From: Wenjunlia tyrosinilytica
GTDB taxonomy: Bacteria; Actinomycetota; Actinomycetes; Streptomycetales; Streptomycetaceae
Assembly: GCF_014646055.1 (NCBI RefSeq)
Contig: NZ_BMMS01000001.1
Location: forward strand, 144,240-208,239
DNA: 64,000 bases
Direction of reading: 5' to 3'
Part shown: positions 37,006-64,000 of the stretch, piece by piece
How the letters are laid out: each line of letters opens with the position of its first letter
Position numbering within the stretch: the stretch's first letter is position 1
Position numbers and translations under genes: made by a program
The notes under the pieces: model-generated
Database searches by the model: none
What the model was told of the DNA's origin: nothing
Seen by the model: the letters and a program-made list of their open reading frames with translations, nothing else

Positions 37006-37938
37006 TCACTCGTGCCGCAGGCTCAGCACATCGGTCATGGCGAAGCCGCCACCGCCCGCGCGTTCCGCGTAGTAGGGGGTGAGCAGGCCGTCGAGCTCCT
37101 CGACGCCGAACGCCTCCTTCGCGGTGTCGAACCTCGCCTCGACACGCGGGCTGGAGACCACGGCGACCATCCCGCCGTGGACCACGAACACCTGCCCGTT
37201 GACCCCGTCGGCGGGCGGCGAGGCCAGATAGGCGACCAGCGGTGAGACATGCTCGGCGGCCAGCGGATCGAGTCCTTCGCCGGGCGCCGGAACGCCGGCG
37301 AAGACGTCGTCGGTCATCCGGGTACGGGCGCGTGGGCAGATCGCGTTGGCCCGCACCCCGTACTTGGCGAGCGCGGTCGCCGTGCTGGTGGTGAGGCCGA
37401 TGATTCCGCCCTTGGCCGCCGCGTAGTTGGGCTGGCCGGGTGATCCTGCGAGGAACGCCTCGGACGAGGTGTTGACGATCCGTCCGTAGACCGGGTGTCC
37501 CGCTTCCTTGGAGCGCTCGCGCCAGTGGGCGGCGGCGAAGTGGGTGGTGTTGAAATGCCCCTTCAGATGGACGCGGATCACCGAGTCCCACTCGTCCTCC
37601 GTCATGGAGAAGACCATGCGGTCGCGCAGGATGCCCGCGTTGTTGACGAGGATGTCGAGTCGGCCGTAGGTGCCCACCGCCAACTGGACGAGTTCCCGGG
37701 CCTGTTCGAAGTCGGCCACGTCACCGTGGTGGGCGACGGCCGTGCCGCCCTCGGCCTCGATGGCCGCCACGGTCCGCCTCGCCGGGGTGGCCGATGCCTC
37801 GCCCGAGCCGTCACGGCTCGGGCTGCCGAAGTCATTGACCACCACACGCGCGCCGAGCCTGGCCAGCTCCAATGCCTCGGCGCGGCCGAGGCCCCGTCCG
37901 GCGCCCGTGACGATCGCGGTCCTGCCTCGCAACAGCAT
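37006..37938 (-). CDS. Short-chain dehydrogenase (MFE-2/17-beta-HSD4-like hydroxyacyl-CoA dehydrogenase)
   Basis: 310 residues. NAD fold RTAIVTGAGRGLGRAEALELA, then VVVNDFGSPSRDGSG, typical of the dehydrogenase part of peroxisomal multifunctional enzyme 2 (Hsd4A/ChsB1-like), NNAGILRD, and the catalytic Ser and Tyr-x3-Lys in NTSSEAFLAGS and QPNYAAAKGG. It would oxidise a 3-hydroxyacyl-CoA. The C-terminal 60 residues extend past a minimal SDR. Third gene of the operon with MaoC hydratase and a zinc alcohol dehydrogenase; GAGGAG is 7 nt before the ATG. The operon promoter carries a KstR-like site, suggesting steroid or related side-chain oxidation. Confidence 0.88.
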   Translation of the reverse strand: MLLRGRTAIVTGAGRGLGRAEALELARLGARVVVNDFGSPSRDGSGEASATPARRTVAAIEAEGGTAVAHHGDVADFEQARELVQLAVGTYGRLDILVNNAGILRDRMVFSMTEDEWDSVIRVHLKGHFNTTHFAAAHWRERSKEAGHPVYGRIVNTSSEAFLAGSPGQPNYAAAKGGIIGLTTSTATALAKYGVRANAICPRARTRMTDDVFAGVPAPGEGLDPLAAEHVSPLVAYLASPPADGVNGQVFVVHGGMVAVVSSPRVEARFDTAKEAFGVEELDGLLTPYYAERAGGGGFAMTDVLSLRHE

Positions 37939-38025
37939 CCGGCTTCTCCTCGGAGTTCGGCTTCGGCGGCCCCGGCCCTCCCGGGCCCGAGCCGTGGACG
38001 TATGGAGCGGAGCGAGTGCGCGCGG

Positions 38026-39105
38026 TCAGAGCGAGATGCATGTACGCAGCGCCTCGCCGCTGCGCATCTGCGTGATCGCCTCATTCACCTCGTCGAGGCG
38101 CACCCGGTGGGTGATCATGCTCTCCAGGTCTATCCGGCCCGCCCGCCAGAGCTTGGTGATCCGCTCGTAGGAGCGCAGCACATCGCCGCCGCCGTAGATG
38201 GACGGCAGGATGCGCTTCTCGTCGAAGAAGAGCTCGAACATGTTGAACTGCGCGAAGTCGTCCATCGCCCCGGCTCCGACGACGCACACCGTGCCGCCGC
38301 GCCGGGTCGCCTCGTAGGCCGCGCGGGCGGTGGCGGACTTGCCGACGACCTCGAAGACGTAGTCGAAGCCCTCCCCGGCGGTGATGCGCTGTCCGGCGTC
38401 GGCCAGCGCGTCGGGGGCGACCGCTTCGGTGGCCCCGAAGCCCAGCGCCGCCTCGCGGCGGGAGGCCACGGGGTCGACGGCGACGATCTCGGCGGCGCCG
38501 GCGACCCGTGCGCCCTGGACGGCGCTGATGCCCACCCCTCCGCAGCCGATGACGGCGACGGAGGAACCGGGCTCCACCTCGGCGGTGTTGAGGGCGGCGC
38601 CGATGCCGGTGGTGACACCGCAGCCGATGAGTGCGGCGACGTCGTAGGGCAGGTCGTCGGGGATGGGGACGGCGCAGCCCGCGGGCAGCACGGTCTCCTC
38701 GGCGAACGTTCCGGTGCCCGCGAAGCCGAAGACGTCCGCCCCTGCGGTGAACCGGAAGTTGGGCGTGCCGGCGTTCATGAAGCCGGTGAGGCAGAGATTG
38801 CCCTGGCCGCGCCGGCACGACGGGCAGGTGCCGCACGGCGGCAGCCAGCACACGATGACCCGGTCGCCCGGCTTTGCGCCGGTGACGTCGTCGGCGACCT
38901 CGACGACGTCGCCCGCGCCCTCGTGGCCGGGGACGAACGGGGCGGGCTGCGGCAGGACGCCGGTCATGGCCGAGAGGTCGGAGTGGCACAGGCCGGTGGA
39001 GTGCAGCCGCACCCGTACCTTGCCGGGTCCGAATCCCACCGCCTCGACGTCGTCGCGTACTTCGAGCTTGTCCTGACCGGTCTCTTGCAGGATGGCTGCG
39101 CGCAT
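38026..39105 (-). CDS. Zinc-dependent alcohol dehydrogenase, class III-like MDR
   Basis: 359 residues. Catalytic zinc site STGLCHSDLSAM and PGHEGAGDVVEV; structural zinc CGTCPSCRRGQGNLC; Rossmann fold VAVIGCGGVGISAVQGARVAGA. Overall layout matches the NAD-dependent alcohol dehydrogenases seen with actinobacterial lipid and steroid genes (AdhD-like). Oxidises an alcohol to aldehyde or ketone, substrate unknown. It lies between the MaoC gene (52 bp away) and the SDR gene (87 bp). The 52-bp gap contains three copies of a TCGATCAGGTGTG-like word. Confidence 0.9.
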   Translation of the reverse strand: MRAAILQETGQDKLEVRDDVEAVGFGPGKVRVRLHSTGLCHSDLSAMTGVLPQPAPFVPGHEGAGDVVEVADDVTGAKPGDRVIVCWLPPCGTCPSCRRGQGNLCLTGFMNAGTPNFRFTAGADVFGFAGTGTFAEETVLPAGCAVPIPDDLPYDVAALIGCGVTTGIGAALNTAEVEPGSSVAVIGCGGVGISAVQGARVAGAAEIVAVDPVASRREAALGFGATEAVAPDALADAGQRITAGEGFDYVFEVVGKSATARAAYEATRRGGTVCVVGAGAMDDFAQFNMFELFFDEKRILPSIYGGGDVLRSYERITKLWRAGRIDLESMITHRVRLDEVNEAITQMRSGEALRTCISL

Positions 39106-39157
39106 GCCCGGCTCCTCGGGTGGGTTCGATCAGGTGTGGGAAATCAGGTGCGCTCGA

Positions 39158-40015
39158 TCAGGTGTGCTCGATCAGGGTGTCGGCGAGCACGGGCGCGTGG
39201 TCGCGCTCCACGGAGGTCGCCAGGACCTGGATGCGGCCCTCGCCCTCGTTCCACATCCGGATGCGCATGGTCTCGCCGGGGAAGAGGATCCCGGCGAAGC
39301 GCGTCGAGTAGGCCCGGACGCGGGTCGCATCGCCGCCGAGCGCGGCGTCGACGACGGCCTTCAGCACGATGCCGTAGGAGCACAGGCCGTGCAGGATGGG
39401 CCGGTCGAAGCCGGCGAGCTCGGCGAACTCCGGGTCGGCGTGCAGCGGGTTCCAGTCGCCGCAGAGGCGGTACAGCAGCGCCTGGTCCTCGCGGGTGGCG
39501 CGCTCGACGGTGCGGTCCGGCTCGCGCTCCGGTGCCTCGAGGCGGTCGGAGGGGCCGCGCTCGCCGCCGAATCCGCCCTCGCCGCGGACGAAGATCCGGG
39601 TGGACGCCGACCAGAGCGGCCCTTCGTCGTCGTGGACGTCGGAGCGCAGGACGATGACGGCGGCCTTGCCCTTGTCGTGAACGGCCTCCACCCTGCCGAT
39701 CGCGGTGGCCCGGCCGGTGACGGGGATGGGCCGGTGCAGCTCGATGCGCTGGCCGCCGTGGAGGACGGTGGCGAGGTCCACCTCGATACCGGGGGCGGCG
39801 AGCCCGCCCGCGAGCGCCATCGCGCCGCCCGCCACGGTGCTGAAGCTCGGCAGGACCTGGAGTCTGCTCTCCAGCGTGTAGCGCAGTTCCTCGGCGTCGG
39901 TGGCCGGCCGTCCCGCTCCCACTCCGAGGTGGTAGAGCAGGACGTCCTTGTGGTCCCAGGCCAGCTCGGCAGTGCGAGGCTCGGCGGCGACGGCCCTGGC
40001 GGCATCGATGGGCAT
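39158..40015 (-). CDS. MaoC-like 2-enoyl-CoA hydratase 2 (double hot-dog)
   Basis: 285 residues, two hot-dog halves. The second half carries the hydratase 2 motif LCGDWNPLHADPEFA with catalytic Asp and His, then GFDRPILHGLCSYG, as in the hydratase part of MFE-2 and in ChsH3/Hsd4B-like mycobacterial proteins. It adds water to a trans-2-enoyl-CoA. ATG 40015 has GGAAGG 7 nt upstream; another ATG six bases earlier is too near that site. First gene of the operon MaoC-ADH-SDR, with a palindromic operator 110 bp upstream. Confidence 0.88.
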   Translation of the reverse strand: MPIDAARAVAAEPRTAELAWDHKDVLLYHLGVGAGRPATDAEELRYTLESRLQVLPSFSTVAGGAMALAGGLAAPGIEVDLATVLHGGQRIELHRPIPVTGRATAIGRVEAVHDKGKAAVIVLRSDVHDDEGPLWSASTRIFVRGEGGFGGERGPSDRLEAPEREPDRTVERATREDQALLYRLCGDWNPLHADPEFAELAGFDRPILHGLCSYGIVLKAVVDAALGGDATRVRAYSTRFAGILFPGETMRIRMWNEGEGRIQVLATSVERDHAPVLADTLIEHT

Positions 40016-40124
40016 GTCCATCCCTTCCGGGCGCGGTGGGGGCGGCCGTGCCGTGGTGAACCCCGGCACGGCCGTCCGCACCGTCAGCCGCACCGGGGTC
40101 GTCCGGTCAGAACAGGTCTGCGAT

Positions 40125-40140
40125 CTAGAACACGTTCTAG
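40125..40140. promoter_or_regulatory. KstR-like operator, site A
   Basis: CTAGAAC-AC-GTTCTAG: perfect 7-bp arms, 2-bp spacer. It fits the published mycobacterial KstR pattern TnnAACnnGTTnnA. It stands between the MaoC operon and the divergent histidine kinase gene, about 110 bp from the MaoC start. Confidence 0.75.
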
Positions 40141-40293
40141 GCAAGGCCCATGTATAACGCATCACAGCGGACATGGGAAGGGATGACAACGTGTCAGTAA
40201 CGCGCCTCGGTGGCCACCCGGGACTTTTGTCCTGCCGGACCGCGTACATTCGCAACTGCCCAGGTCAGAGATGGTTCTCGTAGTCTTCCCGGC

Positions 40294-41433
40294 ATGAAGG
40301 CCACAGAAGCGCTGCGGGAGCCGTCGTTCGAGGAGCACCTGGACCGGATGACACCGCCGACCGCGAAAACGTTCCTCCCCTGGCTGCTGGTGGCGGCGGG
40401 CCCGGCGGTGCAGGTGGTCAAGGGCGAACCCCCGCTGCCCTGGGTGGCCGCGGCGGGCCTCGCCGCCTTCGCGGTGCTCTACGCATGGACCGTCGTGGCC
40501 GCGTTCGGCGCCCGCACCAAGGGCGGTCCACTGCCCAAGCGCCTGCTCCGGGTGCTGACGGTCCTCACCTTCTGCCTCACCGTCGGATACGGGCCGGACT
40601 GGCTGCTGCTGTTCCCGCTGCTGTCACTGGCCATGGGAACCGTGCTGCGCTACCGCGTCCTCGGGCTCGCCCTGACGGCGCTGTCGGGCACCGCCGGCAT
40701 CGTCGCGGGCTGGCGCGGCGACGACTTCTGGGACTCCCTGTCCATCGGCTACGGCACCTTCATCTCCGGCATGGTGACCTCGGCGATCCTCTCGCTGTTC
40801 GAGACCGTGACCCGGCTGCGCGAGACCCGCAAGGAGCTGGCCAGGGCGGCGGTGGAGGAGGAGCGGCTGCGGTTCTCCAGGGACCTGCACGACCTGCTCG
40901 GGCACACGCTGTCGGTCGTCGTGGTCAAGGCGGAGGCGGTGCGCCGCCTGGCGCCGCGCGACCTGGACGCGGCACTCGGGCAGGCGGCCGACATCGAATC
41001 GGTCGGGCGCCAGGCGCTCACCGAGATCAGGGAGGCCGTGACCGGCTACCGACAGGCCGACCTCGCGACGGAACTGGACCGGGCCCGCTCCGCCCTGCTG
41101 GCGGTCGGCATCGAGCCCCACGTGCGTGAGTCGGGTCCGGCGCTGCCACCGCAGACCGAGGCCCTGCTGGGCTGGGTCGTCCGCGAGGGGGTCACCAATG
41201 TGGTCCGGCACAGCCGCGCCCGGCGGTGCGACATCGAGTTGAGCGGTGACGGGGAGGTGGTGCGCCTGGAGATAAGGGACGACGGACGGGGAGCGTCGGG
41301 CCCCGTAGGCTCGGGCAGCGGACTGCGGGGGCTGGGGGAACGGCTGGCGGCGGCGGGCGGCGGGCTGACCGCCGAGCCCATGGACCACGGCTTCCGTGTG
41401 GAGGCGACACTGCAGGTGGGAGGGGCCGAGTGA
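40294..41433 (+). CDS. Sensor histidine kinase, NarL/DesK type (HisKA_3)
   Basis: 379 residues. Four to six hydrophobic segments at about 35-165 (FLPWLLVAAGPAVQVV, WVAAAGLAAFAVLYAW, LLLFPLLSLAMGTVL). The phosphoacceptor block is RFSRDLHDLLGHTLSVVVVK; the ATP-binding part includes REGVTNVVRHSRA (N box), IRDDGRGA and GSGLRGLGERL. No extracytoplasmic sensor domain of note, so it resembles DesK-like membrane sensors. Its stop overlaps the GTG of the response regulator gene, a cognate pair. Divergent from the MaoC operon, but probably not part of it functionally. Confidence 0.93.
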   Translation: MKATEALREPSFEEHLDRMTPPTAKTFLPWLLVAAGPAVQVVKGEPPLPWVAAAGLAAFAVLYAWTVVAAFGARTKGGPLPKRLLRVLTVLTFCLTVGYGPDWLLLFPLLSLAMGTVLRYRVLGLALTALSGTAGIVAGWRGDDFWDSLSIGYGTFISGMVTSAILSLFETVTRLRETRKELARAAVEEERLRFSRDLHDLLGHTLSVVVVKAEAVRRLAPRDLDAALGQAADIESVGRQALTEIREAVTGYRQADLATELDRARSALLAVGIEPHVRESGPALPPQTEALLGWVVREGVTNVVRHSRARRCDIELSGDGEVVRLEIRDDGRGASGPVGSGSGLRGLGERLAAAGGGLTAEPMDHGFRVEATLQVGGAE

Positions 41434-42035
41434 TCCGGCTGCTGCTGGCCGAGGACCAGGGCATGATGCGCGGGGCGCTGGCGTTGCTGCTCGGCCTGGA
41501 GGAGGACTTCGAGGTCGTGGCCCAGGTCGGGTCGGGCGACGAGATCGTGCCCAAGGCCCTCGAGACGACTCCGGACGTGGCACTGCTCGACATCGAACTG
41601 CCCGGCCGCAGCGGCCTCGACGCCGCCGCCGAACTCCGCGAGGAGCTACCGGGCTGCCGGGTGCTGATCCTCACGACGTTCGGCCGCCCCGGCCATCTGC
41701 GCCGGGCGATGGAGGCGGGCGCCGGCGGCTTCCTGGTCAAGGACGGCCCCGTGGAGGAACTGGCCGCGGCCGTGCGCCGGATCCTCGACGGTGAGCGGGT
41801 CATCGATCCCGCGCTGGCCGCCGCCGCGCTGAGCGCGGGCCCCAACCCGCTGACGGCGCGTGAACGCGAGGCGCTCACCGCCGCCGTGGACGGGGCGACC
41901 AGCGCTGACATCGCCTCCAAGCTCCATCTGTCCGAGAGCACCGTGCGCAACTACCTGTCGTCGGCCATCGGCAAGACGGGCACCCGCAACAGGATGGAGG
42001 CGGTCCGCGCGGCCCGTCGGAACGGCTGGCTCTAG
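41430..42035 (+). CDS. NarL/LuxR-family response regulator
   Basis: 201 residues. Receiver with the acidic pair LLLAEDQGM, phosphoacceptor Asp in VALLDIELPGRSG, Thr in LILTTFG and Lys in FLVKDGP; C-terminal LuxR helix-turn-helix LTAREREALTAAVDGATSADIASKLHLSESTVRNYLS (quoted in pieces: helix 3 is SESTVRNYLS). Acts as partner of the preceding histidine kinase, whose stop it overlaps (GTGA). DesR-like in length. Targets unknown. Confidence 0.93.
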   Translation: MIRLLLAEDQGMMRGALALLLGLEEDFEVVAQVGSGDEIVPKALETTPDVALLDIELPGRSGLDAAAELREELPGCRVLILTTFGRPGHLRRAMEAGAGGFLVKDGPVEELAAAVRRILDGERVIDPALAAAALSAGPNPLTAREREALTAAVDGATSADIASKLHLSESTVRNYLSSAIGKTGTRNRMEAVRAARRNGWL

Positions 42036-42156
42036 GGCCGGTCGCAGGGCGGGGCGAACGGGCGGCAGCGCGCCGCGCGCTCGCCGCCGGGCGCCGAGCC
42101 GGTCAGGAACGCCCTGGCCAGGGGCCGTTGTCAGTGGTGCCTGGCAGGATCCGGGC

Positions 42157-43335
42157 ATGGCTTCGCAGAGCGGTATCAGCGACAACGCCGACATCACCGG
42201 CTACTGGGACGCGGCCGCGGACGCGTTCGACAGCGAGCCCGATCACGGCCTGCTCGACCCCTGCGTGCGGCAGGCATGGCGGGAGCGATTGCGCTCATGG
42301 CTCCCGGAGGAGCCGAGCCGTGTGCTCGATCTCGGCTGCGGGACGGGGAGCCTGGCGCTGCTCGCCGCCGAGGCCGGTCATGAGGTGACCGCCGTCGATC
42401 TGTCGCCCCGGATGGCGGAGCGGGCCCGCGCCAAGCTGGCCGGAACGAGCGCGCGGGTCCTCGTCGGTGACGCCGCCCGGCCGCCCGTCGGACCCGGCGC
42501 CTTCGATGTCGTGCTCGCCCGCCATCTGGTGTGGACACTGCCCGATCCGGTGAACACCTTGCGGCACTGGGCCTGTCTGCTGCGTCCCGCCGGGCGCCTG
42601 GTGCTCATCGAGGGGCGGTGGGCAGGCACCGGGCAGTACGTCAACGGCAGCCGGGCGCGCCTGCCGTGGGTCGGCGGCGTGACCGCCGATGCCCTCGCCG
42701 AGGCCGTGGCGTCCTGGGCGGCCCGTATCGAGACCGACCGGCTGCGCGAGGCGGCCCTGTGGGGCCGCGAGATCAACGACGAGCGGTACGCCATGGTCGT
42801 ACGGCCGGCGCCGCCCACGCGCCACCGCGAGGTGGTCGACGTCCATCTGATCGTGCGCCGGGGCGAGGAGGTGCTGCTGGCCCGCCGATCCGGTACCGGC
42901 TACGCCGACGGCCTGCTCCACGCCCCCTCCGGGCACGCGGAGGACGGCGAGGACGTATGTGAGGCGATGGTCCGGGAGGCGCGGGAGGAGATCGGTCTCG
43001 ACCTCGCGCCCGAAGACCTGCGCGTGGCGCTGGTGATGCAGCACTGCGCCCCCGGCGCCGCGGAGCCGCGCATGGGCTGGTTCTTCGAGGCGGCGTACGG
43101 AGTCGGCGGTGAGCCGGTCAACCTCGAGCCCCACAAGTGCTCCGAGCTCGGCTGGTTCCCGCTGGACGAGCTGCCGCTCGACATGGTGGCGTACTGCAGG
43201 GCGGGGGTCGACGCCTACCGGGAGGGGCACCGCTTCGCACTGCACTGGCACCACCCCGGTGACAGCATCGCGTTCGACCCGGACGCCCCCGGCCGCGCCG
43301 TCGCGCTGCCCATGGCACACCTACCCGCGCCGTAG
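42157..43335 (+). CDS. Fusion of class I SAM methyltransferase and Nudix hydrolase
   Basis: 392 residues. Residues 1-225: SAM fold with [19 protein letters not shown] (motif I), [15 protein letters not shown] and [15 protein letters not shown]. Residues 230-392: Nudix domain with [18 protein letters not shown] and EEIGL, the full G-x5-E-x7-RE-x2-EE-x-G box, so metal binding should be intact. The Nudix part likely cleaves a nucleoside-diphosphate-linked molecule; the methyltransferase substrate is unknown. No linker or frameshift between the two. The last 15 bp overlap the end of the convergent thiolase gene. Confidence 0.88.
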
Positions 43336-44517
43336 CAGGGTGACGACCGCCGCTCCGCCGAGGCCGATGTTGTGGGCGAGGCCGACCCGGGCGCCGGGGA
43401 CCTGGCGGTCGGCGGCCTCGCCCCTGAGCTGCCAGACGAGTTCGGCGCACTGGGCGAGGCCGGTCGCGCCCAGTGGATGCCCCTTGGAGATGAGTCCTCC
43501 GGAGGGATTGACCACCCACTGCCCGCCATAGGTCGTGGCGCCGTCGGCGACGAGCTCGCCGCTGCCGCCCTCGGCGCACATGCCCAGCGCCTCATAGGTC
43601 AGGAGCTCATTGATGGAGAAGCAGTCGTGGAGCTCGATCACGTCCACGTCCTCGATACCGAGCCCCGACTCCGCGTAGACCCGCCGGGCGGCGGCACGGC
43701 TCATCGGCAGACCCACGGCGTCGACGCACGAGCCGGAGGCGAACGACTCCTCGGTGTCCGTCGCCATGGCCTGGGCGGCGATCTCCACCGCCCGCTCCCC
43801 CAGCCCGTGCTCCTCCACGAACCGCTCGGAGGCGACCACCGCGGCCGCGGCGCCGTCCGAGGTCGGGGAGCACTGGAGCTTGGTGAGGGGGGCGTGGATG
43901 GTCCGCGCGTCCAGCACCTCGTCGAGGGTGTACTCGTCGCGGAACTGGGCGTAGGGATTGCGCACGGAGTGCCGGTGGTTCTTCACGCCCACGGTGGCGA
44001 GTTGCTCGGGCGTGGTGCCGTGGCGCTCCATGTGCTCGCGCGCCGCGTTGCCGAAGATCTGAGCGGTGGGCGGTGACTTCTCGAAGCCGTGCCGCGCCGC
44101 CATGACGCCGTAGTGGCGGGAGACGGGCGAGGTGGAGAAGTCCCCACCGGAGGCGGAGCCGCCCAGCGGGCCCCTGGTCATCTTCTCGAAGCCGAGGGCG
44201 AGTACGCAGTCGTTGACTCCACCCGCGACGAACTGCCGCGCCAGCATGAGCGCGGTGGCGCCCGTGGCGCAGTTGTTGTTGACGTTGTAGACGGGGACGC
44301 CGCTCAGGCCCAGCTCGTACGCGGCGCGCTGGCCGGCCGTGGACGCCTGGTAGCAGTAGCCGACGGGGACCTGCTCCACCTGCCCGTAGGCGATCCCGGC
44401 GTCGTGCAGGGCGGCGCCCCCGGCCTCACGCACCATGTCCCAGTACTGCCGGTCCCCGGTCTCGGGCTTCTCGAACTTCGTCATGCCCACGCCGACGACG
44501 AACGCCTTCCGGGTCAT
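43321..44517 (-). CDS. SCP-x-like thiolase (lipid-transfer-protein type)
   Basis: 398 residues. [15 protein letters not shown], the nucleophilic Cys in [16 protein letters not shown], the His of [12 protein letters not shown], and [21 protein letters not shown] are thiolase blocks of the SCP-x/Ltp branch rather than the FadA branch. In mycobacteria and Rhodococcus, related proteins (Ltp2-4, FadA5-like) shorten steroid side chains. CGAGGAGAGG is upstream of ATG 44517. A KstR-like site lies 33 bp before the start, where it would block transcription. The gene probably works with the SDR, MaoC and ADH genes to the left. Confidence 0.9.
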
Positions 44518-44549
44518 GGCCCGCCCCTCTCCTCGGCTCGCCGCGATAC

Positions 44550-45272
<723 letters not shown>

Positions 45273-45312
45273 GCGGTTCGCCGCGGCGGGCGCACTCGCC
45301 GCGGCGAACCGC
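45273..45312 (+). terminator. 16-bp perfect hairpin after the methyltransferase
   Basis: GCGGTTCGCCGCGGCG and its exact complement flank an 8-nt loop (GGCGCACT). The stem begins 1 nt after the stop codon. Confidence 0.85.
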
Positions 45313-45456
45313 GGCAGGCGCGGTTCCGCCGCGTCAGCGCGGCATTCGGTGTCGCTTTCGCTGTGAAAGCGGCATCCACCTGGCGCGGCGCCACCGCCGC
45401 GCTGGAGAATCAATCGGGGACCGATACGGGATCGCACGACGTGGGGGCGGCACGGC

Positions 45457-47650: not shown

Positions 47651-47762
47651 CGGACCCCCGGCCCCGGCGCGGGAGCCTCAATCCGCCCCCGTACGATGGT
47701 GCTTCCGCGCCCGAAGCACCGGCGACAGCGACGACGACACCAAGACCCACAAAGGACTTCAC

Positions 47763-48626: not shown

Positions 48627-48708
48627 CCGTGACCGCCCGACGGCGCCGGAACCGCGGCAGGTGAACCGCGGCGCGTGAGCGCACCCGGCGCCACCGAGCA
48701 CCGGCGCG

Positions 48709-48738
48709 AGGCCCCGACCCCACCGTGGGTCGGGGCCT
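48709..48738 (+). terminator. 12-bp hairpin terminator
   Basis: AGGCCCCGACCC, loop CACCGT, GGGTCGGGGCCT, followed by TCCCGTTTCG. Ends transcripts of the membrane-protein gene. Confidence 0.85.
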
Positions 48739-48855
48739 TCCCGTTTCGTCCCCGGCGCCCTAAGGTCGGCTCCCGACGCCCGGTCACCCGTTCGGCCGAC
48801 CGATACGGAGTCCTTCCGGTCGGGAGGCTTGGGGTCTTCGAGTAGGAGTAGCCTC

Positions 48856-49866
48856 ATGCGGCTCGGTCTCGCCCTCGGGTACTGGGGGCGCGGTCCCTCG
48901 CCCGACACGCTCCCCCTCGTCCAGGAGGCGGAACGGCTCGGCTACCACTCCGTGTGGACGGCCGAGGCCTGGGGCTCCGACGTCTTCACCCCGCTCACCT
49001 GGATCGCCGCGCACACCACCCGGATCCGGCTGGGCACCGCCATCGCCCAGATGGCGGCACGCACCCCGACCGCCACCGCGATGCACGCCCTCACCCTCGA
49101 CCACATGTCCGGCGGACGGATGATGCTCGGTCTGGGACTGTCCGGGCCGCAGGTCGTGGAAGGCTGGTACGGCAGGCCGTTCCCCCGCAGCCCGTTGACG
49201 GCGACGCGCGAGTATGTCGAGGTGATCCGGCAGGTGCTGCGCAGGTCCGAGCCGGTGCGGCTGGACGGCGACTACCACCGGCACCCCTACAACGGGCCGG
49301 ACGCCACCGGCCTGGGCAAACCCCTCAAGCCGATCGTGCACCCGCTGCGCCCGGACCTGCCGATCCTGCTCGGCGCCGAGGGCCCGAAGAACATCGCCCA
49401 GACCACCCGGATCGCCGACGGCTGGCTGCCGCTGTACTGGTCGCCGTTCCGTACCGGCGCCTACGCCGAATCGCTCGCCGAGGCGCCGAAGGACTTCCTC
49501 GTCGCCCCGATGGTGCACGCCCGGGTGTGCGACGACGTGGCGCAGGGGCTGGCGCCGGTGAAGGCCGTCATCGGCTTCTACATCGGGGGCATGGGCGCCA
49601 AGGGGCGGAACTTCCACGCCGATCTCATGGCCAGGATGGGCTTCGAGGCCGAGGCCCGCCGGATCCAGGAGCTCTTCCTCGACGGGCGCCGGGACGAGGC
49701 GATCGCGCTGGTGCCGGAGGAGTTCGTGGACGAGATCTCGCTGGTGGGACCGCGCGAGCGCGTCGCGGAGCGGCTGGAGGCATGGCGGGAGGGCCCGGTG
49801 ACGGACCTGCTGATCACCTCGCGCGACCGGGACACCCTGCGGACCCTCGCCGAGCTGGTCGGCTGA
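48856..49866 (+). CDS. LLM-class F420-dependent oxidoreductase
   Basis: 336 residues. LALGYWGRG, AERLGYHSVWTAEAWGSDVF, IRLGTAIAQMAARTPTATAM, HMSGGRMMLGLGLSGP and YVEVIRQVLRR are the luciferase-like monooxygenase core in its F420-binding actinobacterial branch. It transfers a hydride to or from an unknown substrate with the deazaflavin F420. ATG 48856 follows AGGAG by 7 nt. Single gene between a terminator on the left and a convergent lipoprotein gene on the right. Confidence 0.88.
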   Translation: MRLGLALGYWGRGPSPDTLPLVQEAERLGYHSVWTAEAWGSDVFTPLTWIAAHTTRIRLGTAIAQMAARTPTATAMHALTLDHMSGGRMMLGLGLSGPQVVEGWYGRPFPRSPLTATREYVEVIRQVLRRSEPVRLDGDYHRHPYNGPDATGLGKPLKPIVHPLRPDLPILLGAEGPKNIAQTTRIADGWLPLYWSPFRTGAYAESLAEAPKDFLVAPMVHARVCDDVAQGLAPVKAVIGFYIGGMGAKGRNFHADLMARMGFEAEARRIQELFLDGRRDEAIALVPEEFVDEISLVGPRERVAERLEAWREGPVTDLLITSRDRDTLRTLAELVG

Positions 49867-49927
49867 CCCGGACGGGCCCCGGCCGAAGCGGTCGGCCGAA
49901 CCGACGGGCCGGTCCCCCGCGGCGGGT

Positions 49928-50470
49928 TCAGCCGCCCAACTGCCCCGCGGTGGGCAGCCGGTCGGTGACCGGGGCGCCGCAGTCGTCCCCCGCCTCCTTG
50001 ACGCTGCTGATCACATTCTCGAAGGTGTCGATGTCCTCGTCGCCGGCGTCCCCCGCGCGCAGCTTGGCACCCAGCCCCTGAAGGCTCTCGATGCCCTCGC
50101 CCAGCGGGGCGACGGACTCGGTCAGCCGCGGGTCGCCCTCGGCCTCCCTGGTCGCGGCCTTGAGCCTGCTGTATGTGAACGAGCCCGCGAGCCCGGCCTT
50201 GACCAGCGCCATCGTGCGTCCCTGCGCACCCTTGCGCAGCCGCCCCGCCTTGTACGGCTTGACGATCCACTGGTACGTGGCCCCGGCGGCCAGGCCCGCG
50301 TTGGCGACGAACCGGGTCTTGGCGAACCTCGCCCGCTCTGCCGAGGCCGCGGGAGCCGCCGGACCCGCGGCGGTTTCCTCGGCAGTCGATCCGCAGGCGG
50401 GTACCGACAGCAGGGCAGCGGCGAGCAGAAGTGCCGTCAGCGTCCGCTGGAGGGACGAGGCGTACGGCAC
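49928..50470 (-). CDS. Small lipoprotein of unknown function
   Basis: 180 residues. Signal peptide RTLTALLLAAALLSVPAC, a good lipobox with Cys 26, then an Ala-rich spacer. The mature part is helical (RFVANAGLAAGATYQWIVKPYKAG, quoted without its end) with one later Cys. I recognise it only as a conserved streptomycete hypothetical. No neighbour gives a functional hint; the small membrane-protein gene to the right is divergent. Confidence 0.75.
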   Translation of the reverse strand: MPYASSLQRTLTALLLAAALLSVPACGSTAEETAAGPAAPAASAERARFAKTRFVANAGLAAGATYQWIVKPYKAGRLRKGAQGRTMALVKAGLAGSFTYSRLKAATREAEGDPRLTESVAPLGEGIESLQGLGAKLRAGDAGDEDIDTFENVISSVKEAGDDCGAPVTDRLPTAGQLGG

Positions 50471-50648
50471 GGCGCTGTACCTTTCGGGGGCATGAGTGTG
50501 CGAGGGTCTTCTGCAGACTCACACGGCCCACCCGTCCTCGCGATCCATGCGCGTCCGTTCGGGTGGCCCGCCGAGCGCGGACAAACAGCCGTTCGACGGG
50601 TGGGAAACAGCGGGGTTTCAAGTCGTCGGTTGCGGCAAGCCGTTGACT

Positions 50649-50936
50649 ATGGCCAGACACTATGGAGGAAACCAGGCCGCGGTCGTGATACGGGTCGTCG
50701 CCGACATCATGGCGCTGATCCTCGGACTGTGGATCCTGATGTATGTGCTGGACGCGAACCGCGCGAACGACCTGGTCAGCTTTGTGCGGGACGCCGCGAA
50801 CTGGCTCGCGGGCTGGTCCCACGACCTGTTCACCATGGACACCGACTGGCTGCGGGTTCTGCTGAACTACGGCCTGCCCGCCGTGGTGTACCTGCTGATC
50901 GGGCACGCTCTCGCGGCCCGCGTCAGCCGCCTGTAG
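50649..50936 (+). CDS. Small membrane protein, unknown function
   Basis: 95 residues from ATG 50649. Two hydrophobic segments: VVIRVVADIMALILGLWILMYVL (inner part quoted short: MALILGLWILMYVL) and LLNYGLPAVVYLLIGHALA, joined by a helix DLVSFVRDAANWLAGWSHDLF. The N-terminal MARHYGG is charged. Common in streptomycetes as a hypothetical protein. The ribosome site is weak; upstream in-frame codons up to 50496 look noncoding. Confidence 0.7.
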   Translation: MARHYGGNQAAVVIRVVADIMALILGLWILMYVLDANRANDLVSFVRDAANWLAGWSHDLFTMDTDWLRVLLNYGLPAVVYLLIGHALAARVSRL

Positions 50937-50952
50937 GACACCCGTCCACCGG

Positions 50953-52065
50953 CTATGACGCGCAGCCGTCAGCCTCGCATCCGCTCGCCGAGGGCTCCAG
51001 GCCCACCGGGAGCAGATCTCCCCCGAAGACGGCGGTGGTGGCGTCGTCTCCCCCGAGCGCCGCCACCGCGAGCAACAGCGAGCCCGCGGTCCACGAGGTC
51101 TTCTCCTCGGGCCAGACCGCGTCGTCCTCGAACACGTAGCCGGTCCAGTACATGCCGTCCTCCGCCCGCAGGTGTCCGATCCACCGCAGGATCTCCACCG
51201 CCCGGTCGGACTCACCCATCGCCCACAGCGCGAGCGCCAGCTCGGCGCTCTCGCCGCCGGTCACCCAGGGCCGGTCGGAAACGCAGCGCACCCCCAGGCC
51301 GGGGACGACGAAACGGTCCCACTCGGCCTCGATCCGCTCCTTTGCCGCGGCACCGCGCAAGGCCGTGCCCAGCACCGGGTAGTACCAGTCCATCGAGAAG
51401 CGTCCCTTGTCCAGGAAGCGCCCGGGGTGGTCGAGCACCGCGTGGCCCAGCCGCCCGGTGGCCAACTCCCAGTCAGGCTGCGGCTCTTCACGGTGCTCGG
51501 CGATGGCCAGGGCGCAGCGCAGCGCCTGGTACATGCTCGAGCAGCCGGTCAGCAGGGCCTCGTCGGGAGCGGTGCCGTCGGGGTCGCGCTTCCAGCGGAT
51601 CTGCCCGCCGGGTGCCTGAAGGCCCAGGACGAACTCCACCGCCGCGTAAACGGTCGGCCACATCCGGTCGAGGAAGGCGTCGTCCCCGGTGGCCAGGTAG
51701 TGGTGCCAGAGCCCGACCGCGATGTAGGCGCAGAAGTTGGACTCGCGCACCCGGTCCGTGGGGACGCCGTCGGTGTAGGCGGCGTACCAGGAGCCGTCGC
51801 TGTTCTGGTTGTCGGCGAGCCAGCGGTAGGCGGCCTCGGCGCGCTCGTGCTCGGCGGCCACGTCGAGGGCCATGGCCGACTCGACGTGGTCCCACGGGTC
51901 CAGATGGCCTCCGGTGAACCAAGGGATGGCGCCGTCGGGACGCTGGATCGCCGCTATCGCGCGCACGGTGGCCGCGGCCTGGTCGGCGGTGAGCACCCCG
52001 GGCAGTTCCAGCAGCGAGTAGGAGTCGCCGCCGGTGCGGCCGAGGGGCCTTCCTGGCGTGGTCAC
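50953..52065 (-). CDS. Alpha/alpha-toroid protein (prenyltransferase/squalene-cyclase-like fold)
   Basis: 370 residues from GTG. Repeated helical hairpins with aromatic-rich ends such as ATVRAIAAIQRPDGAIPW, YRWLADNQNSDGSWY and ILRWIGHLRAEDGMYWTGYV resemble the QW-like repeats of terpene cyclases/prenyltransferase-like toroids; glycoside-hydrolase-like toroids (GH15/GH88 style) are another possibility. No DXDD motif of squalene-hopene cyclases is seen, so cyclase chemistry is doubtful. Last gene of the operon glycosyltransferase, methyltransferase, toroid; its GTG overlaps the methyltransferase stop (GTGA). Ends with a Cys pair (SGCEADGCAS). Confidence 0.7.
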   Translation of the reverse strand: MTTPGRPLGRTGGDSYSLLELPGVLTADQAAATVRAIAAIQRPDGAIPWFTGGHLDPWDHVESAMALDVAAEHERAEAAYRWLADNQNSDGSWYAAYTDGVPTDRVRESNFCAYIAVGLWHHYLATGDDAFLDRMWPTVYAAVEFVLGLQAPGGQIRWKRDPDGTAPDEALLTGCSSMYQALRCALAIAEHREEPQPDWELATGRLGHAVLDHPGRFLDKGRFSMDWYYPVLGTALRGAAAKERIEAEWDRFVVPGLGVRCVSDRPWVTGGESAELALALWAMGESDRAVEILRWIGHLRAEDGMYWTGYVFEDDAVWPEEKTSWTAGSLLLAVAALGGDDATTAVFGGDLLPVGLEPSASGCEADGCAS

Positions 52066-52883
52066 CGGCCGCTCTCAACGGACGGCGCGGCGGCGGACAC
52101 GGCGGCTTCGGCGGACACGGCGGACACGGCGGCTTCGGCAGAGCCCGCGGGCTCTGCCGGCGCGGCCGGCAGGTGGGGCTTGGTCGCGTAGGCGACGAAG
52201 CTCTTGCCGATCAGCGGGTTGAGGGCCTGCTCCGCCAGGCGGGTGGCGAGCGGGCGCTTCATGATGTCCCAGACCAGCAGCTTGTGATACGCCTTCACCG
52301 GCAGTGCCTTGTCGTTGTCCACGCCGACGGCGCATTTGATCCACCAGTACGGCGAGTGCAGCCCGTGGGCGTGGTGGGTTCCGTAGGGGTTCAGGCCCGC
52401 CTCGCGCATCCTGCCGAGCAGTTCGTCGCCGCGGTAGATGCGGATGTGGCCGCCCTCGACCTCGTGGTACTCGTCGGAGAGCATCCAGCAGATCTTCTCG
52501 GGAAGCCAGCGCGGCACGGTGACGGCGATGAGACCGCCCGGCCGCAGGACGCGGACCATCTCGGCGAGCACGCCCTTGTCGTCGGGGATGTGCTCCATGA
52601 CCTCGGAGATGATCACGCGGTCGAAGCTGTCGTCCGGGAACGGCAGGGCCAGGGCGTCGCCCTCGATGGCGACGGCGGTGGCTCCGGCCGGGGCCTCGCC
52701 CTCGAGCGCCATCGCCCCGAACATCTTGCCGACCTCGAGGATCTCGTCAGCGTTGCGGTCCAGGGCGACGACATTGGCGCCGCGCCGGTAGCACTCGAAG
52801 GCATGGCGGCCGGCACCGCAGCCGAGGTCGAGTACCCGGTCGCCGGGGGCGAGCGGGAAGCGAGAGAAGTCCACGGTCAGCAC
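52062..52883 (-). CDS. Class I SAM-dependent methyltransferase
   Basis: 273 residues from [23 protein letters not shown] (motif I), VVALDRNADEILEV (motif II), FDRVIISEVMEHIPDD and RPGGLIAVTVPRWLPE are UbiE/Methyltransf_11-like. WWIKCAVGVDNDKALPVKAY in the last third is not part of the core and may bind a lipid or glycan. The C-terminal 35 residues are an Ala/Ser/Val repeat (SAEAAVSAVSAEAAVSAA) encoded by a short GGCTTCGGCGGACACGGC-like DNA repeat. Middle gene of the glycosyltransferase operon. Confidence 0.85.
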   Translation of the reverse strand: MLTVDFSRFPLAPGDRVLDLGCGAGRHAFECYRRGANVVALDRNADEILEVGKMFGAMALEGEAPAGATAVAIEGDALALPFPDDSFDRVIISEVMEHIPDDKGVLAEMVRVLRPGGLIAVTVPRWLPEKICWMLSDEYHEVEGGHIRIYRGDELLGRMREAGLNPYGTHHAHGLHSPYWWIKCAVGVDNDKALPVKAYHKLLVWDIMKRPLATRLAEQALNPLIGKSFVAYATKPHLPAAPAEPAGSAEAAVSAVSAEAAVSAAAPSVESGR

Positions 52884-52920
52884 TGGGGGCTCTGCTTTCG
52901 TCTGAGGCGTATCGCTGCGT

Positions 52921-52963
52921 CGGCTGGTCGGCTTCGGCTGGTCGGCTTCGGCTGGTTCGGCTT
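52921..52963. repeat. Three tandem copies of a 14-bp word
   Basis: CGGCTGGTCGGCTT twice, then a 15-bp variant, in the 93-bp gap between the glycosyltransferase stop and the methyltransferase start. Confidence 0.85.
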
Positions 52964-52976
52964 CTGCGAGGGGGGG

Positions 52977-54305
52977 TCAGCGTGGTCGGGTGGCGGCCCT
53001 GGCCGCGATGGCCTCGCGGTAGCGGTCGGCGGTACCGCGGGCGGCCTGCTCCCAGGTGAAGCGGCGCAGCACCCGTTCGCGCCCCGCGGCTCCGAGGCGA
53101 CGGCGCAGGTCCGGGTCGCCGAGCAGGCGGCACAGGGCGGCGGCCAGCGCTCCGGCGTCGCCCGGAGGCACGGCGAGGCAGGTCCGCCCGTCGGGGCCGG
53201 CGACCTCCGGGATGGCTCCGCCGGTGGTGGCCACCAGGGGGGTGCCGGTCGCCATGGCCTCGGCGGAAGGCAGGGAGAAGCCCTCGTACAGGGAGGGCAC
53301 GCAGGCCACCTCGGCGCCGCGGATGAGGTCGACGAGTTCGGCGTCGCTGATGCCCTTGACGAACTCGATGGCGCCACCGAGCCCGAACCGCTCGATGGCG
53401 GCGGCGACCGGCCCGTCGTCGGACCGCTTGCCGACGACGACGAGGTGGGCGTCGGGCCGTTCCGTACGCACCTTGGCGAGCGCCTCGACGAGGTGGATCA
53501 GACCCTTGAGCGGTACGTCGGCGCTGGAAGTGGTGACGATGCGGCCGGGCACCTCGGGCACGGAGGGGTCGGGCGAGAACAGTCCGGTGTCGGCGCCGAT
53601 GTGGACGACATGGATGCGCTCGGGACGCACACCGAGGTCGTCGATGATCTCCTGTCGCGAGGTGCCGGAGACGGTCAGCACCGACGGCAGGCGTCGGGCC
53701 ACGCGCTTCTGCATCCGGGTGAAGCCGTACCAGCGGCGCACGGACAGGCGGCGCCGCCGGTTGGGCGCCGCGTCGAGCTCCAGGCGCCGGTCCACGGTGA
53801 TCGGGTGGTGGATGGTGGTGACGAGCGGGAAGCCGAGGCGTTCGAGGCCGAGCAGTCCGTAGCCGAGGGTCTGGTTGTCGTGGACGACGTCGAACTCACC
53901 GCGCCTGGCGGCGAGGTGACGGCGGGCCCGCAGGCTGAAGGTCAGCGGCTCGGGGAAGCCCGCGCTGAGCATGACGCCGACCTCGAGCAGGTCCACGGCG
54001 TCGCGGTACTCACGCGGCCCGGGTACGCGGAACGGGTCGGGCTGCCGGTAGAGATCGAGGCTCGGCAGCTCGGTGAGCGGCACCCCGCCGTCCAGGACCG
54101 GGTAGGGCTGGGCGCCGATGACCTCGACGGTGTGCCCGAGCCGGGCGAGTTCGCGGGAGAGGTGGCGGACGTAGACGCCCTGGCCTCCGCAGAACGGGTT
54201 TCCCTTGTACGAGAGCAGCGCGATGCGCAGCGGACCCTCACCGGCGGCGGGGGCGATCGGTTCGACGGGATCGGGCCCGATCGCCTGCGCGGCCTCAGCG
54301 GTCAC
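52977..54305 (-). CDS. GT4-family glycosyltransferase
   Basis: 442 residues from GTG 54305 (GAAGGGGG 6 nt upstream). N-terminal acceptor domain: LRIALLSYKGNPFCGGQGVYVRHLSRELA with the GGQG loop. C-terminal GT-B half: VTTSSADVPLKGLIHLVEAL, HLVVVGKRSDDG, AEVACVPSLYEGFSLPSAEAMA (E-x7-E motif, nucleotide-sugar binding) and GTPLVATTGGAIPEV. Retaining transferase using an NDP-sugar, likely on a lipid or cell-wall glycan. First gene of the operon with a methyltransferase and a toroid protein. The promoter region, shared with the divergent KstR-like gene, holds two KstR-type sites. Confidence 0.9.
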   Translation of the reverse strand: MTAEAAQAIGPDPVEPIAPAAGEGPLRIALLSYKGNPFCGGQGVYVRHLSRELARLGHTVEVIGAQPYPVLDGGVPLTELPSLDLYRQPDPFRVPGPREYRDAVDLLEVGVMLSAGFPEPLTFSLRARRHLAARRGEFDVVHDNQTLGYGLLGLERLGFPLVTTIHHPITVDRRLELDAAPNRRRRLSVRRWYGFTRMQKRVARRLPSVLTVSGTSRQEIIDDLGVRPERIHVVHIGADTGLFSPDPSVPEVPGRIVTTSSADVPLKGLIHLVEALAKVRTERPDAHLVVVGKRSDDGPVAAAIERFGLGGAIEFVKGISDAELVDLIRGAEVACVPSLYEGFSLPSAEAMATGTPLVATTGGAIPEVAGPDGRTCLAVPPGDAGALAAALCRLLGDPDLRRRLGAAGRERVLRRFTWEQAARGTADRYREAIAARAATRPR

Positions 54306-54359
54306 TCGCGGCCCCCTTCTCACTGCGGCTCAGCCGGAGCGTATCCGTCCATGTTCATT

Positions 54360-54373
54360 TAGAACAAGTTCCA
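54360..54373. promoter_or_regulatory. KstR-like operator, site C
   Basis: TAGAACAAGTTCCA, matching TnnAACnnGTTnnA, 55 bp before the glycosyltransferase GTG and facing its promoter. Confidence 0.7.
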
Positions 54374-54519
54374 CTATCGGATCGCCCGGGAAGTCTCGAA
54401 GATACCCGCCGCCGCCACCTTCCCTGTCACCGCGTCCCGTGATCCGCGCCACTCCCTCGCCCCGCCACGCCACCCGAACCCACCGGGAGCAGGACGAACG
54501 CACACTCCTCGCGCTAAAG

Positions 54520-54533
54520 TAGAACGGGTTTCA
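54520..54533. promoter_or_regulatory. KstR-like operator, site D
   Basis: TAGAACGGGTTTCA, one position weaker than the others, 108 bp before the regulator's GTG start; probably the autoregulatory site. Confidence 0.65.
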
Positions 54534-54641
54534 ATGATTCGCGCACGGCGGCGCCGCCTGCCATCATCCCCGTGTCCGCAAGCCGCGCGGACGGACCACG
54601 GGCGCGGATCGCTGAGGCCGCACCGTTCGAAAGGAAGCCCG

Positions 54642-55259
54642 GTGACAGCAGCCCCCAAACCGGCCTCCCTGCCGCTGACCGAGCGCCAGGAGGCGCGCCG
54701 CCGCCGGATCCTCCACGCGAGCGCCCAGCTCGCCAGCCGAGGCGGCTTCGACGCGGTCCAGATGCGCGAGGTGGCCGAGACGTCCGAGGTGGCACTCGGC
54801 ACGCTCTACCGCTACTTCCCGTCCAAGATCCATCTGCTCGTCGCGACCATGCAGGACCAGTTGCAGCACATGCACGAGCAGATGCGCAAGCGTCCGCCGG
54901 CGGCACAGGAACCTTCGGCCAGAGTGGCCGAGACCTTGATGCGCGCCTTCCGCGCCCTCCAGCGAGAGCCTCATCTGGCTGACGCAATGGTAAGGGCACT
55001 TACGTTCGCAGACCGCTCGGTGAGCGCCGAGGTGGACATGGTCAGCCGTCTGACCACGGCCATCATTCTGGACGCCATGGGGCTGGCGACACCGCCGACA
55101 GCCGAGCAGTTGTCGGCCGTCAGGGTCATCGAACACACATGGCACTCGGCCCTCATCACCTGGCTTTCCGGGCGTGCCTCGATCGCTCAGGTCAAGATCG
55201 ACATCGAGACCGTCTGCGGGCTCATCGACGTCACGCGCACTGACCAGCGGTCCTCGTAG
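54642..55259 (+). CDS. kstR: TetR-family regulator, KstR-like
   Basis: 205 residues from GTG 54642 with AAAGGAAG 5 nt upstream. LPLTERQEARRRRILHASAQ, LASRGGFDAVQMREVAETSEVALGTLYRYF (helix-turn-helix; the recognition helix is VALGTLYRYF) and SKIHLLVATMQDQL resemble KstR, the repressor of cholesterol catabolism in Mycobacterium and Rhodococcus. The effector in KstR is a CoA thioester of a sterol side-chain intermediate. Support here is double: protein similarity by eye, and four matching operator sites in the window, two of them in its own upstream region. The gene symbol is therefore a strong but not certain call. Confidence 0.8.
   Translation: MTAAPKPASLPLTERQEARRRRILHASAQLASRGGFDAVQMREVAETSEVALGTLYRYFPSKIHLLVATMQDQLQHMHEQMRKRPPAAQEPSARVAETLMRAFRALQREPHLADAMVRALTFADRSVSAEVDMVSRLTTAIILDAMGLATPPTAEQLSAVRVIEHTWHSALITWLSGRASIAQVKIDIETVCGLIDVTRTDQRSS

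Positions 55260-57860: not shown

Positions 57861-57864
<4 letters not shown>
56488..57864 (-). CDS. MFS exporter linked to the NRPS
   Basis: 458 residues, 12 membrane segments in two halves. LLWGSLALSEFGFNASVIAFPLVVL, GLPAGALVDRWNRKRVML (motif A) and LLLTPDELRGRLTAVIGLA fit the MFS_3/enterobactin-exporter-like branch. The long central loop between TM6 and TM7 contains six near-perfect copies of VRSGET, encoded by an 18-bp tandem repeat. GTG 57864 overlaps the NRPS stop (GTGA), so transport and synthesis genes are translated together; export of, or self-resistance to, the peptide is the likely job. Confidence 0.88.
57167..57256. repeat. Five tandem 18-bp copies inside the MFS gene
   Basis: Unit ACCGTCTCGCCCGATCGC, five exact copies, flanked by partial copies on both sides. 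In frame, giving VRSGET repeated in the central cytoplasmic loop of the exporter. Copy number changes would keep the frame. Confidence 0.95.

Positions 57865-64000
<6,136 letters not shown>

What the first reader, a model, noticed from the sequence alone, without database searches (positions are those of the whole stretch)
37006..55259. A KstR-type regulon spread over 18 kb with four operator copies
TAGAAC-nn-GTT-nnA-like palindromes occur at 40125, 44550, 54360 and 54520. Each lies in front of a gene that fits sterol-type beta-oxidation (MaoC-ADH-SDR operon; SCP-x-like thiolase) or of the KstR-like regulator itself. I found no other copies by eye in the 64 kb. Sequence shows the motif and gene types; KstR binding TnnAACnnGTTnnA is established in mycobacteria; that this is one working regulon in this strain is inference. 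Streptomycete sterol catabolism is much less described than the mycobacterial one, and the set here lacks ring-degradation genes.
Basis: partly seen in the sequence, partly recalled or inferred. Interest (0 to 1): 0.75.

Follow-up and report, generated by a model that had tools for sequence, protein, structure and literature searches.

The report
KstR-type switch over methylmannose-polysaccharide operon
In this Streptomyces-type genome, DNA sites like those that the mycobacterial cholesterol repressor KstR binds lie in front of genes that match sterol side-chain breakdown enzymes and also in front of an operon predicted to make methylmannose polysaccharide, a sugar polymer that binds acyl-CoA in the test tube, so one repressor likely controls both; the polymer-operon site was also found in 16 of 20 family members that have the repressor gene but lack the sterol gene CYP125.

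Summary
The four operators are real, intergenic and conserved. Elsewhere in the genome, sites precede two acyl-CoA dehydrogenase genes and lie between CYP125 and FadA5 homologues. In Streptomycetaceae these sterol side-chain genes co-occur and keep their operators (28-30 of the best 30 loci per gene); the ring hydroxylase KshA is absent here, and a strong match occurs in only 2 of 150 relatives. The site at 54360 does not front a sterol gene: it lies 55 bp upstream of ManT, heading ManT-MeT3-MmpH, the methylmannose polysaccharide (MMP) genes. That site is present in 80 of 80 nearest KstR loci, at a fixed distance from ManT, and in 16 of 20 genomes with KstR but no CYP125. A second family shows the link in 29 of 37 loci; ten others in 0 of 43. 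Best reading: a KstR-type repressor, probably released by an acyl-CoA, controls MMP synthesis, with a sterol side-chain module added in about 40% of genomes. Binding, ligand and expression are untested. No held paper names both KstR and methylmannose.

The parts
54642..55259 (+). KstR-type TetR repressor gene (GTG start)
   Evidence: PDB KstR 5aqc E 2.7e-38; NCBIfam KstR model 194.5 bits, cut-off 280; only strong match in the genome
54520..54533 (.). operator TAGAACGGGTTTCA, 109 bp before the repressor gene
   Evidence: a second site in this gap is present in 10 of 80 relatives
54360..54373 (.). operator TAGAACAAGTTCCA, 55 bp before ManT
   Evidence: most conserved site of the set
52977..54305 (-). 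ManT homologue (alpha-1,4-mannosyltransferase of MMP synthesis)
   Evidence: PDB 7qsg 471 bits, next 92
52062..52883 (-). methyltransferase, candidate MeT3 by position
   Evidence: Pfam; no specific PDB match
50953..52065 (-). MmpH homologue (MMP hydrolase)
   Evidence: PDB 7qsj 418 bits, only match
44601..45272 (+). MeT1 homologue (1-O-methyltransferase of MMP synthesis)
   Evidence: PDB 6g7d 266 bits, only match
44550..44563 (.). operator TAGAACGCGTTCCA between SCP-x thiolase and MeT1 genes
   Evidence: before MeT1 found in only 7 of 42 relatives
43321..44517 (-). SCP-x type thiolase (lipid-transfer protein)
   Evidence: NF006102 621 bits, cut-off 436
40126..40139 (.). operator TAGAACACGTTCTA before MaoC-ADH-SDR
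   Evidence: 28 of 30 relatives' loci incl. this genome
39158..40021 (-). MaoC-type enoyl-CoA hydratase 2
   Evidence: Pfam, PDB
38026..39105 (-). zinc alcohol dehydrogenase
   Evidence: Pfam
37006..37938 (-). SDR of the 17beta-HSD4 / hydroxyacyl-CoA dehydrogenase kind
   Evidence: PDB 2et6 299 bits, 7lg9 282 bits; NF005862 466 bits, cut-off 414
38234..38247 (.). exact motif copy inside the ADH coding sequence, probably chance; not counted as an operator

Best explanation
A KstR-type TetR repressor encoded at 54642-55259 is predicted to hold down, through TAGAACnnGTTnnA operators, both the ManT-MeT3-MmpH operon, which likely makes methylmannose polysaccharide (MMP), and a scattered set of genes that match sterol side-chain degradation enzymes. 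Shown by sequence: the operators, their place before the genes, their conservation, and the co-occurrence of the sterol genes. Inferred: that this repressor binds all the sites and blocks the promoters; that an acyl-CoA (as 3-oxo-cholestenoyl-CoA does for mycobacterial KstR, recalled) releases it; that the sterol set shortens sterol side chains without opening the rings; and that MMP, which binds acyl-CoA in vitro, buffers or carries the acyl-CoA produced. The MMP operon is the conserved core of the regulon; the sterol module is an add-on in about 40% of the Streptomycetaceae sampled.
For: Repressor: KstR structures are the best matches; only one strong match in the genome (194 bits, next 39.5); recognition region near-identical. 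MMP genes: ManT, MmpH and MeT1 match their own crystal structures. MMP operator: 80 of 80 nearest loci, 54-55 bp from ManT (interquartile range) while 117-428 bp from KstR; flanking bases are less conserved than the site; 16 of 20 genomes with KstR and no CYP125; in unnamed family f17, 16 of 37 loci have a site before ManT and 13 more have one between KstR and the MBL-ManT gene row. Sterol module: CYP125 and FadA5 homologues around a shared site; sites upstream in 28/30, 28/30, 30/30 and 30/30 of the best loci, reversed pattern 0 of 119; four genes together in 57 of 150 genomes, KstR in all 65 with CYP125. Literature: motif and KstR binding (PMC1995591), MMP enzymes (PMC9883506), acyl-CoA binding (PMC2674218), passages seen.
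Against: The repressor is below the NCBIfam KstR cut-off (194.5 against 280). No binding, ligand or expression data. 4 of 20 CYP125-less genomes lack the ManT site, and outside Streptomycetaceae and f17 no locus has it within 2 mismatches (0 of 43, including 16 of family f4). The MeT1 site is seldom conserved (7 of 42 and 0 of 11). In the C31 dehydrogenase set the pattern also matches within the first 510 coding bases in 12 of 30. Genome-wide, 2-mismatch matches are not enriched (75 against 207 for the reversed pattern). No steroid-CoA ligase was identified under a site. A role of polymethylated polysaccharides in fatty-acid control in living cells has been doubted (PMC2674218).
Confidence: 0.7

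Rival explanations
1. A plain sterol regulon: the repressor serves sterol catabolism only, and the site near ManT is just its autoregulatory site.
For: CYP125, FadA5, MaoC and two acyl-CoA dehydrogenase genes carry the site and co-occur; the site lies in the shared ManT/KstR gap.
Against: The gap site is fixed at 54-55 bp from ManT, not from KstR; it persists in 16 of 20 genomes without CYP125; family f17 has it before ManT even where no KstR-type gene was found in the fetched stretch.
Confidence: 0.12
2. The beta-oxidation set acts on something other than sterols (hopanoids, other terpenoid or branched acids), so the repressor senses a different acyl-CoA.
For: No KshA in this genome and a strong one in only 2 of 150 relatives; the repressor's ligand-binding part matches M. 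tuberculosis KstR at 43 of 126 positions only.
Against: CYP125 homologue matches CYP125 structures at 520 bits against 290 for CYP124, FadA5 homologue passes the steroid-thiolase model; a Streptomyces CYP125 hydroxylates cholesterol (PMC9728343) and cyp125A13 rises on yeast (PMC13170338).
Confidence: 0.11
3. Another TetR protein, not this KstR-type one, binds the sites.
For: TetR operators can be alike, and one search lists 30 weak-to-strong matches to the KstR model in this genome.
Against: The motif is the published KstR motif (PMC1995591); the second-best protein scores 39.5 bits; the gene lies beside the most conserved site; KstR is present in all 65 CYP125 genomes.
Confidence: 0.07

Closest known systems
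KstR regulon of Mycobacterium (Kendall et al. 2007, PMC1995591, passages)
   Same: TetR repressor of the same sequence group, same 14-bp palindrome, sites before its own gene and before side-chain genes
   Different: Here the most conserved site fronts the MMP operon, the ring hydroxylase KshA is absent, and the CYP125/FadA5 site carries TAC in one half in place of AAC. In the passages seen MSMEG_6475 has the motif; the M. smegmatis MMP genes are MSMEG_6481-6484 and have no entry found under 'MSMEG_648'
Mycobacterial MMP gene cluster meT1-mmpH-meT3-manT (PMC9883506, passages and Introduction)
   Same: Homologues of ManT, MmpH and MeT1 in this window; S. griseus is reported to make an acetylated MMP
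   Different: MeT1 lies apart (44601); the operon sits beside a KstR-type gene and its operator; the word KstR does not occur in that paper
Streptomyces CYP125A13 (PMC9728343) and yeast predation by S. lavendulae (PMC13170338), passages
   Same: Streptomyces CYP125 that hydroxylates cholesterol; cyp125A13 and choD rise on yeast
   Different: KstR does not occur in either text; no regulon or MMP link in the passages seen

Membership tests
KstR repressor | score over the NCBIfam KstR equivalog cut-off (280 bits) | tested here: not met
   194.5 bits
KstR repressor | KstR is the closest solved relative | tested here: met
   5aqc, 5cw8 and other KstR chains lead at E about 1e-38; first hit outside the KstR-like group 3.2e-8
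KstR repressor | TnnAACnnGTTnnA site before its own gene and before sterol side-chain genes | tested here: met
   (the CYP125/FadA5 site departs by one base)
KstR repressor | gene diverges from fadE34 | tested here: not met
   it diverges from ManT
KstR repressor | binds the site and is released by a steroid CoA thioester | not testable with these tools
   needs purified protein
MMP biosynthesis gene set | ManT and MmpH homologues | tested here: met
MMP biosynthesis gene set | MeT1 homologue | tested here: met
MMP biosynthesis gene set | MeT3 methyltransferase | tested here: inconclusive
   methyltransferase in the expected place between ManT and MmpH; no specific match
MMP biosynthesis gene set | MMP made by the strain | not testable with these tools
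   needs extraction
Complete aerobic steroid degradation (9,10-seco pathway) | KshA ring hydroxylase | tested here: not met
   no PF19298 match in the genome, 99.95% complete
Complete aerobic steroid degradation (9,10-seco pathway) | KstD and HsaA-D | not tested
Complete aerobic steroid degradation (9,10-seco pathway) | side-chain genes CYP125 and FadA5 | tested here: met

The most novel reading that the evidence does not exclude
In streptomycetes and one other actinobacterial family the core job of the KstR-type repressor is not sterol catabolism but acyl-CoA-responsive control of MMP: the cell builds a methylated sugar polymer to hold and present bulky acyl-CoA, and lineages that eat fungal sterols hung a side-chain pathway on the same switch. 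That would give MMP a regulator, a signal and a function that can be tested directly.
Probability: 0.4. Interest if true: 0.85.

Novelty: new variant of a known kind. Interest (0 to 1): 0.72.

Why it matters
What MMP does in the cell is unsettled: it binds acyl-CoA in vitro, but a role in living cells is doubted (PMC2674218, passages). A conserved KstR-type operator on its operon supplies a candidate regulator and inducer that can be tested in ordinary Streptomyces. It could also explain why a KstR-type gene is found in 141 of 150 Streptomycetaceae although only 2 of 150 have a strong KshA match, and it names a side-chain-only regulon that fits the report that Streptomyces alters yeast sterols (PMC13170338, passages).

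Tried and rejected
Chance as the source of the motif: rejected on position and conservation, not on bare counts. At up to 2 mismatches the genome holds 75 places against 207 for the reversed pattern; exact matches are 23 against 14.

Site 38234 as an operator: rejected, inside the ADH coding sequence. Of the 18 exact matches outside the window, 14 lie inside coding sequence and were set aside. Two intergenic exact matches stay unassigned: C11:215031, and C7:193962 before another TetR gene. One-mismatch sites on C2 and C59 lie inside open frames. The 2-mismatch list was cut before contig C15, so weak sites on later contigs were not read.

First labels for the GT operon (MshA-like GT, GH15-like protein, 'prenyltransferase' in source names) were dropped after the PDB matches to ManT and MmpH. 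I guessed that the sites some 2.5 kb beyond KstR in relatives front a CoA ligase; in most of the loci looked at they front an ALDH/MBL pair. In this genome that gap holds GGGAACATGTTCTA and, by eye, TGATACCAGTTCTA.

MeT1 as a conserved target: not supported (7 of 42 and 0 of 11). No position separates repressors of CYP125 and CYP125-less genomes at the cut-offs used (28 and 20 sequences, pieces with stops left out). The KshA-bearing stretches of G012 and G063 have no exact KstR-type site (L298-L301). Paper searches that gave nothing useful. A genus-wide search reached only 2 genomes, so the family was used.
Full report
OBSERVATION. In the 8.49 Mb assembly there are 23 exact TnnAACnnGTTnnA places against 14 for the reversed pattern; 15 of the 23 lie inside coding sequence by my gene calls. 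Bare matches are therefore mostly noise. What carries the case is position and conservation.

REGULATOR. The protein at 54642-55259 matches KstR crystal structures best (E 2.7e-38; after five such chains the next is 3.2e-8). It scores 194.5 bits on the NCBIfam KstR model, below its cut-off of 280, and is the only strong match in the genome (194 bits, next 39.5). It is 42% identical to the M. tuberculosis segment, 31 of the first 50 aligned positions and 43 of the other 126, with the GTLYRYFPSK stretch identical. Because the cut-off is not met I call it KstR-type.

GENES BEHIND THE SITES IN THE WINDOW. 40126 heads MaoC-ADH-SDR. 44550 lies between an SCP-x thiolase and a MeT1 homologue. 54520 precedes the regulator. 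The best PDB match of the first is 7qsg (471 bits, next 92), which PMC9883506 reports as ManT (the PDB label differs), and of the third MmpH 7qsj (418 bits, the only match); the methyltransferase has no specific match. With MeT1 these correspond to the four-gene methylmannose polysaccharide set described in mycobacteria (PMC9883506; passages and Introduction read). That paper says S. griseus makes an acetylated MMP.

SITES ELSEWHERE IN THE GENOME. TAGAACGTGTTCTA precedes an acyl-CoA dehydrogenase gene on C8, and TAGAACGTGTTTCA another on C31 (domains). The best PDB matches of the C8 protein are 6wy8 and 4x28, which I recall as steroid-type dehydrogenases; the C31 protein was not compared with the PDB. 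ACTAGTACGCGTTCTAGT lies between a FadA5 homologue (689 bits over a cut-off of 515) and a CYP125 homologue, 25 kb from the repressor. The ALDH/MBL gap nearby holds a degenerate site, and a second one by eye.

CONSERVATION OF THE STEROL MODULE. In 150 Streptomycetaceae genomes: CYP125 65, MaoC 73, C8 dehydrogenase 59, KstR-type 141. The C31 dehydrogenase search matched 65; I kept the 57 genomes with a match above 680 bits and dropped the rest (456 bits or less) as likely paralogues. All four module genes occur in 57 genomes, and KstR is present in all 65 CYP125 genomes. Within 500 bp upstream a site with at most 2 mismatches is present in 28 of 30 (C8), 28 of 30 (MaoC), 30 of 30 (C31) and 30 of 30 (CYP125) of the best loci; each 30 includes this genome, and lower-ranked matches were not examined. 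The reversed pattern gave 0 of 119. In the first 510 bp of coding sequence the pattern matched 0 of 89 for three of the genes but 12 of 30 for C31, so for that gene the constant place upstream counts more than presence. In the same-genus genome G001, which has MaoC but no CYP125 match, the MaoC site is absent (L229). The genomes are related, so the co-occurrence p-values overstate.

NO CLOSE RING HYDROXYLASE. KshA_C has no match here. Of 150 family genomes 33 match at all, 2 of them above 300 bits and the rest at 93 or less; most of the weaker ones still pass the Pfam cut-off, so KshA-like oxygenases exist. The KshA stretches of the two strong genomes have no exact KstR-type site. A published screen found steroid pathways absent from 55 of 57 Streptomyces genomes (PMC4810484, passages). 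KstD and HsaA-D were not tested.

THE MMP SITE. In the 80 nearest KstR loci (the best 80 of 500 confirmed, so not a random sample) a site with at most 2 mismatches is present in the ManT/KstR gap in 80 of 80: 70 at two mismatches, 10 at one. Its distance to ManT is 54-55 bp (interquartile range), while its distance to KstR runs from 117 to 428 bp, so it belongs to the ManT promoter. In 20 of the 76 genomes that have KstR but no CYP125, ManT, MeT3 and MmpH homologues adjoin KstR in 20 of 20 and the site is present in 16 of 20.

OUTSIDE THE FAMILY. MmpH relatives occur in 187 of 394 genomes of the class. I fetched 80 loci outside the family, chosen for spread first and then weighted to three families. 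Family f17 (unnamed) has a site before ManT in 16 of 37, one of them weak (L366). In a further 14 of these 37 a KstR-type gene diverges from an MBL gene on the same strand as ManT, and 13 of 14 have a site in that gap. The other ten families together: 0 of 43, among them 0 of 16 in f4 and 0 of 13 in f18; one f46 locus (L333) has TAGAACGTGTTTCA close to the ManT match start, which one search lists and the stricter window did not count. One f26 locus has the KstR-type gene diverging from ManT, with AGGAACACGTTCCA between them, 3 mismatches.

MECHANISM. Shown: the operators, their place and their conservation. Inferred: repression by promoter occlusion, release by an acyl-CoA, side-chain shortening without ring opening, and MMP as acyl-CoA buffer. 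Polymethylated polysaccharides form complexes with acyl-CoA in vitro, but a role in living cells is doubted (PMC2674218, passages). CYP125A13 of S. peucetius hydroxylates cholesterol, and cyp125A13 and choD rise when S. lavendulae meets yeast (PMC9728343, PMC13170338; passages).

LITERATURE. No paper in the held library contains both 'methylmannose' and 'KstR'. Of 51 papers with KstR and Streptomyces I saw the listing of 25, and of 82 in a wider search the listing of 15. Kendall et al. noted a possible S. coelicolor orthologue, SCO2319 (32% identity), without synteny (PMC1995591, passages); that tag is in no other held paper, and I did not test whether it is the orthologue of this repressor. 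Most subscription journals are not held, so this is not proof of absence.

Noticed in passing
window 40210-42035: A histidine kinase / response regulator pair lies between the MaoC operon and the SCP-x gene; its role is unknown.
   Followed up: no
L023:5819-8513: ALDH and MBL-fold genes diverge around a degenerate KstR-type site; relatives have cleaner sites in the same gap. The MBL gene stands between KstR and ManT in part of family f17.
   Followed up: partly
L023:15369-15386: The CYP125/FadA5 operator ACTAGTACGCGTTCTAGT carries TAC in one half-site in place of AAC, and this departure is kept in the 30 relatives' loci examined, this genome included; the published consensus would miss it.
   Followed up: partly
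L408:3122-5130: In unnamed family f26 a KstR-type gene diverges from ManT, with an Hsd4A-like SDR nearby and a 3-mismatch site in the gap.
   Followed up: partly
L016:2963 and L010:3032: Two other intergenic exact motif matches; the first lies before another TetR gene.
   Followed up: no
L299:3204: One match to the recalled KstR2 pattern, in a stretch about 20 kb from a strong KshA gene of genome G012.
   Followed up: no
window 57861-63983: A 2040-aa open frame on the minus strand at the window's end, not examined.
   Followed up: no
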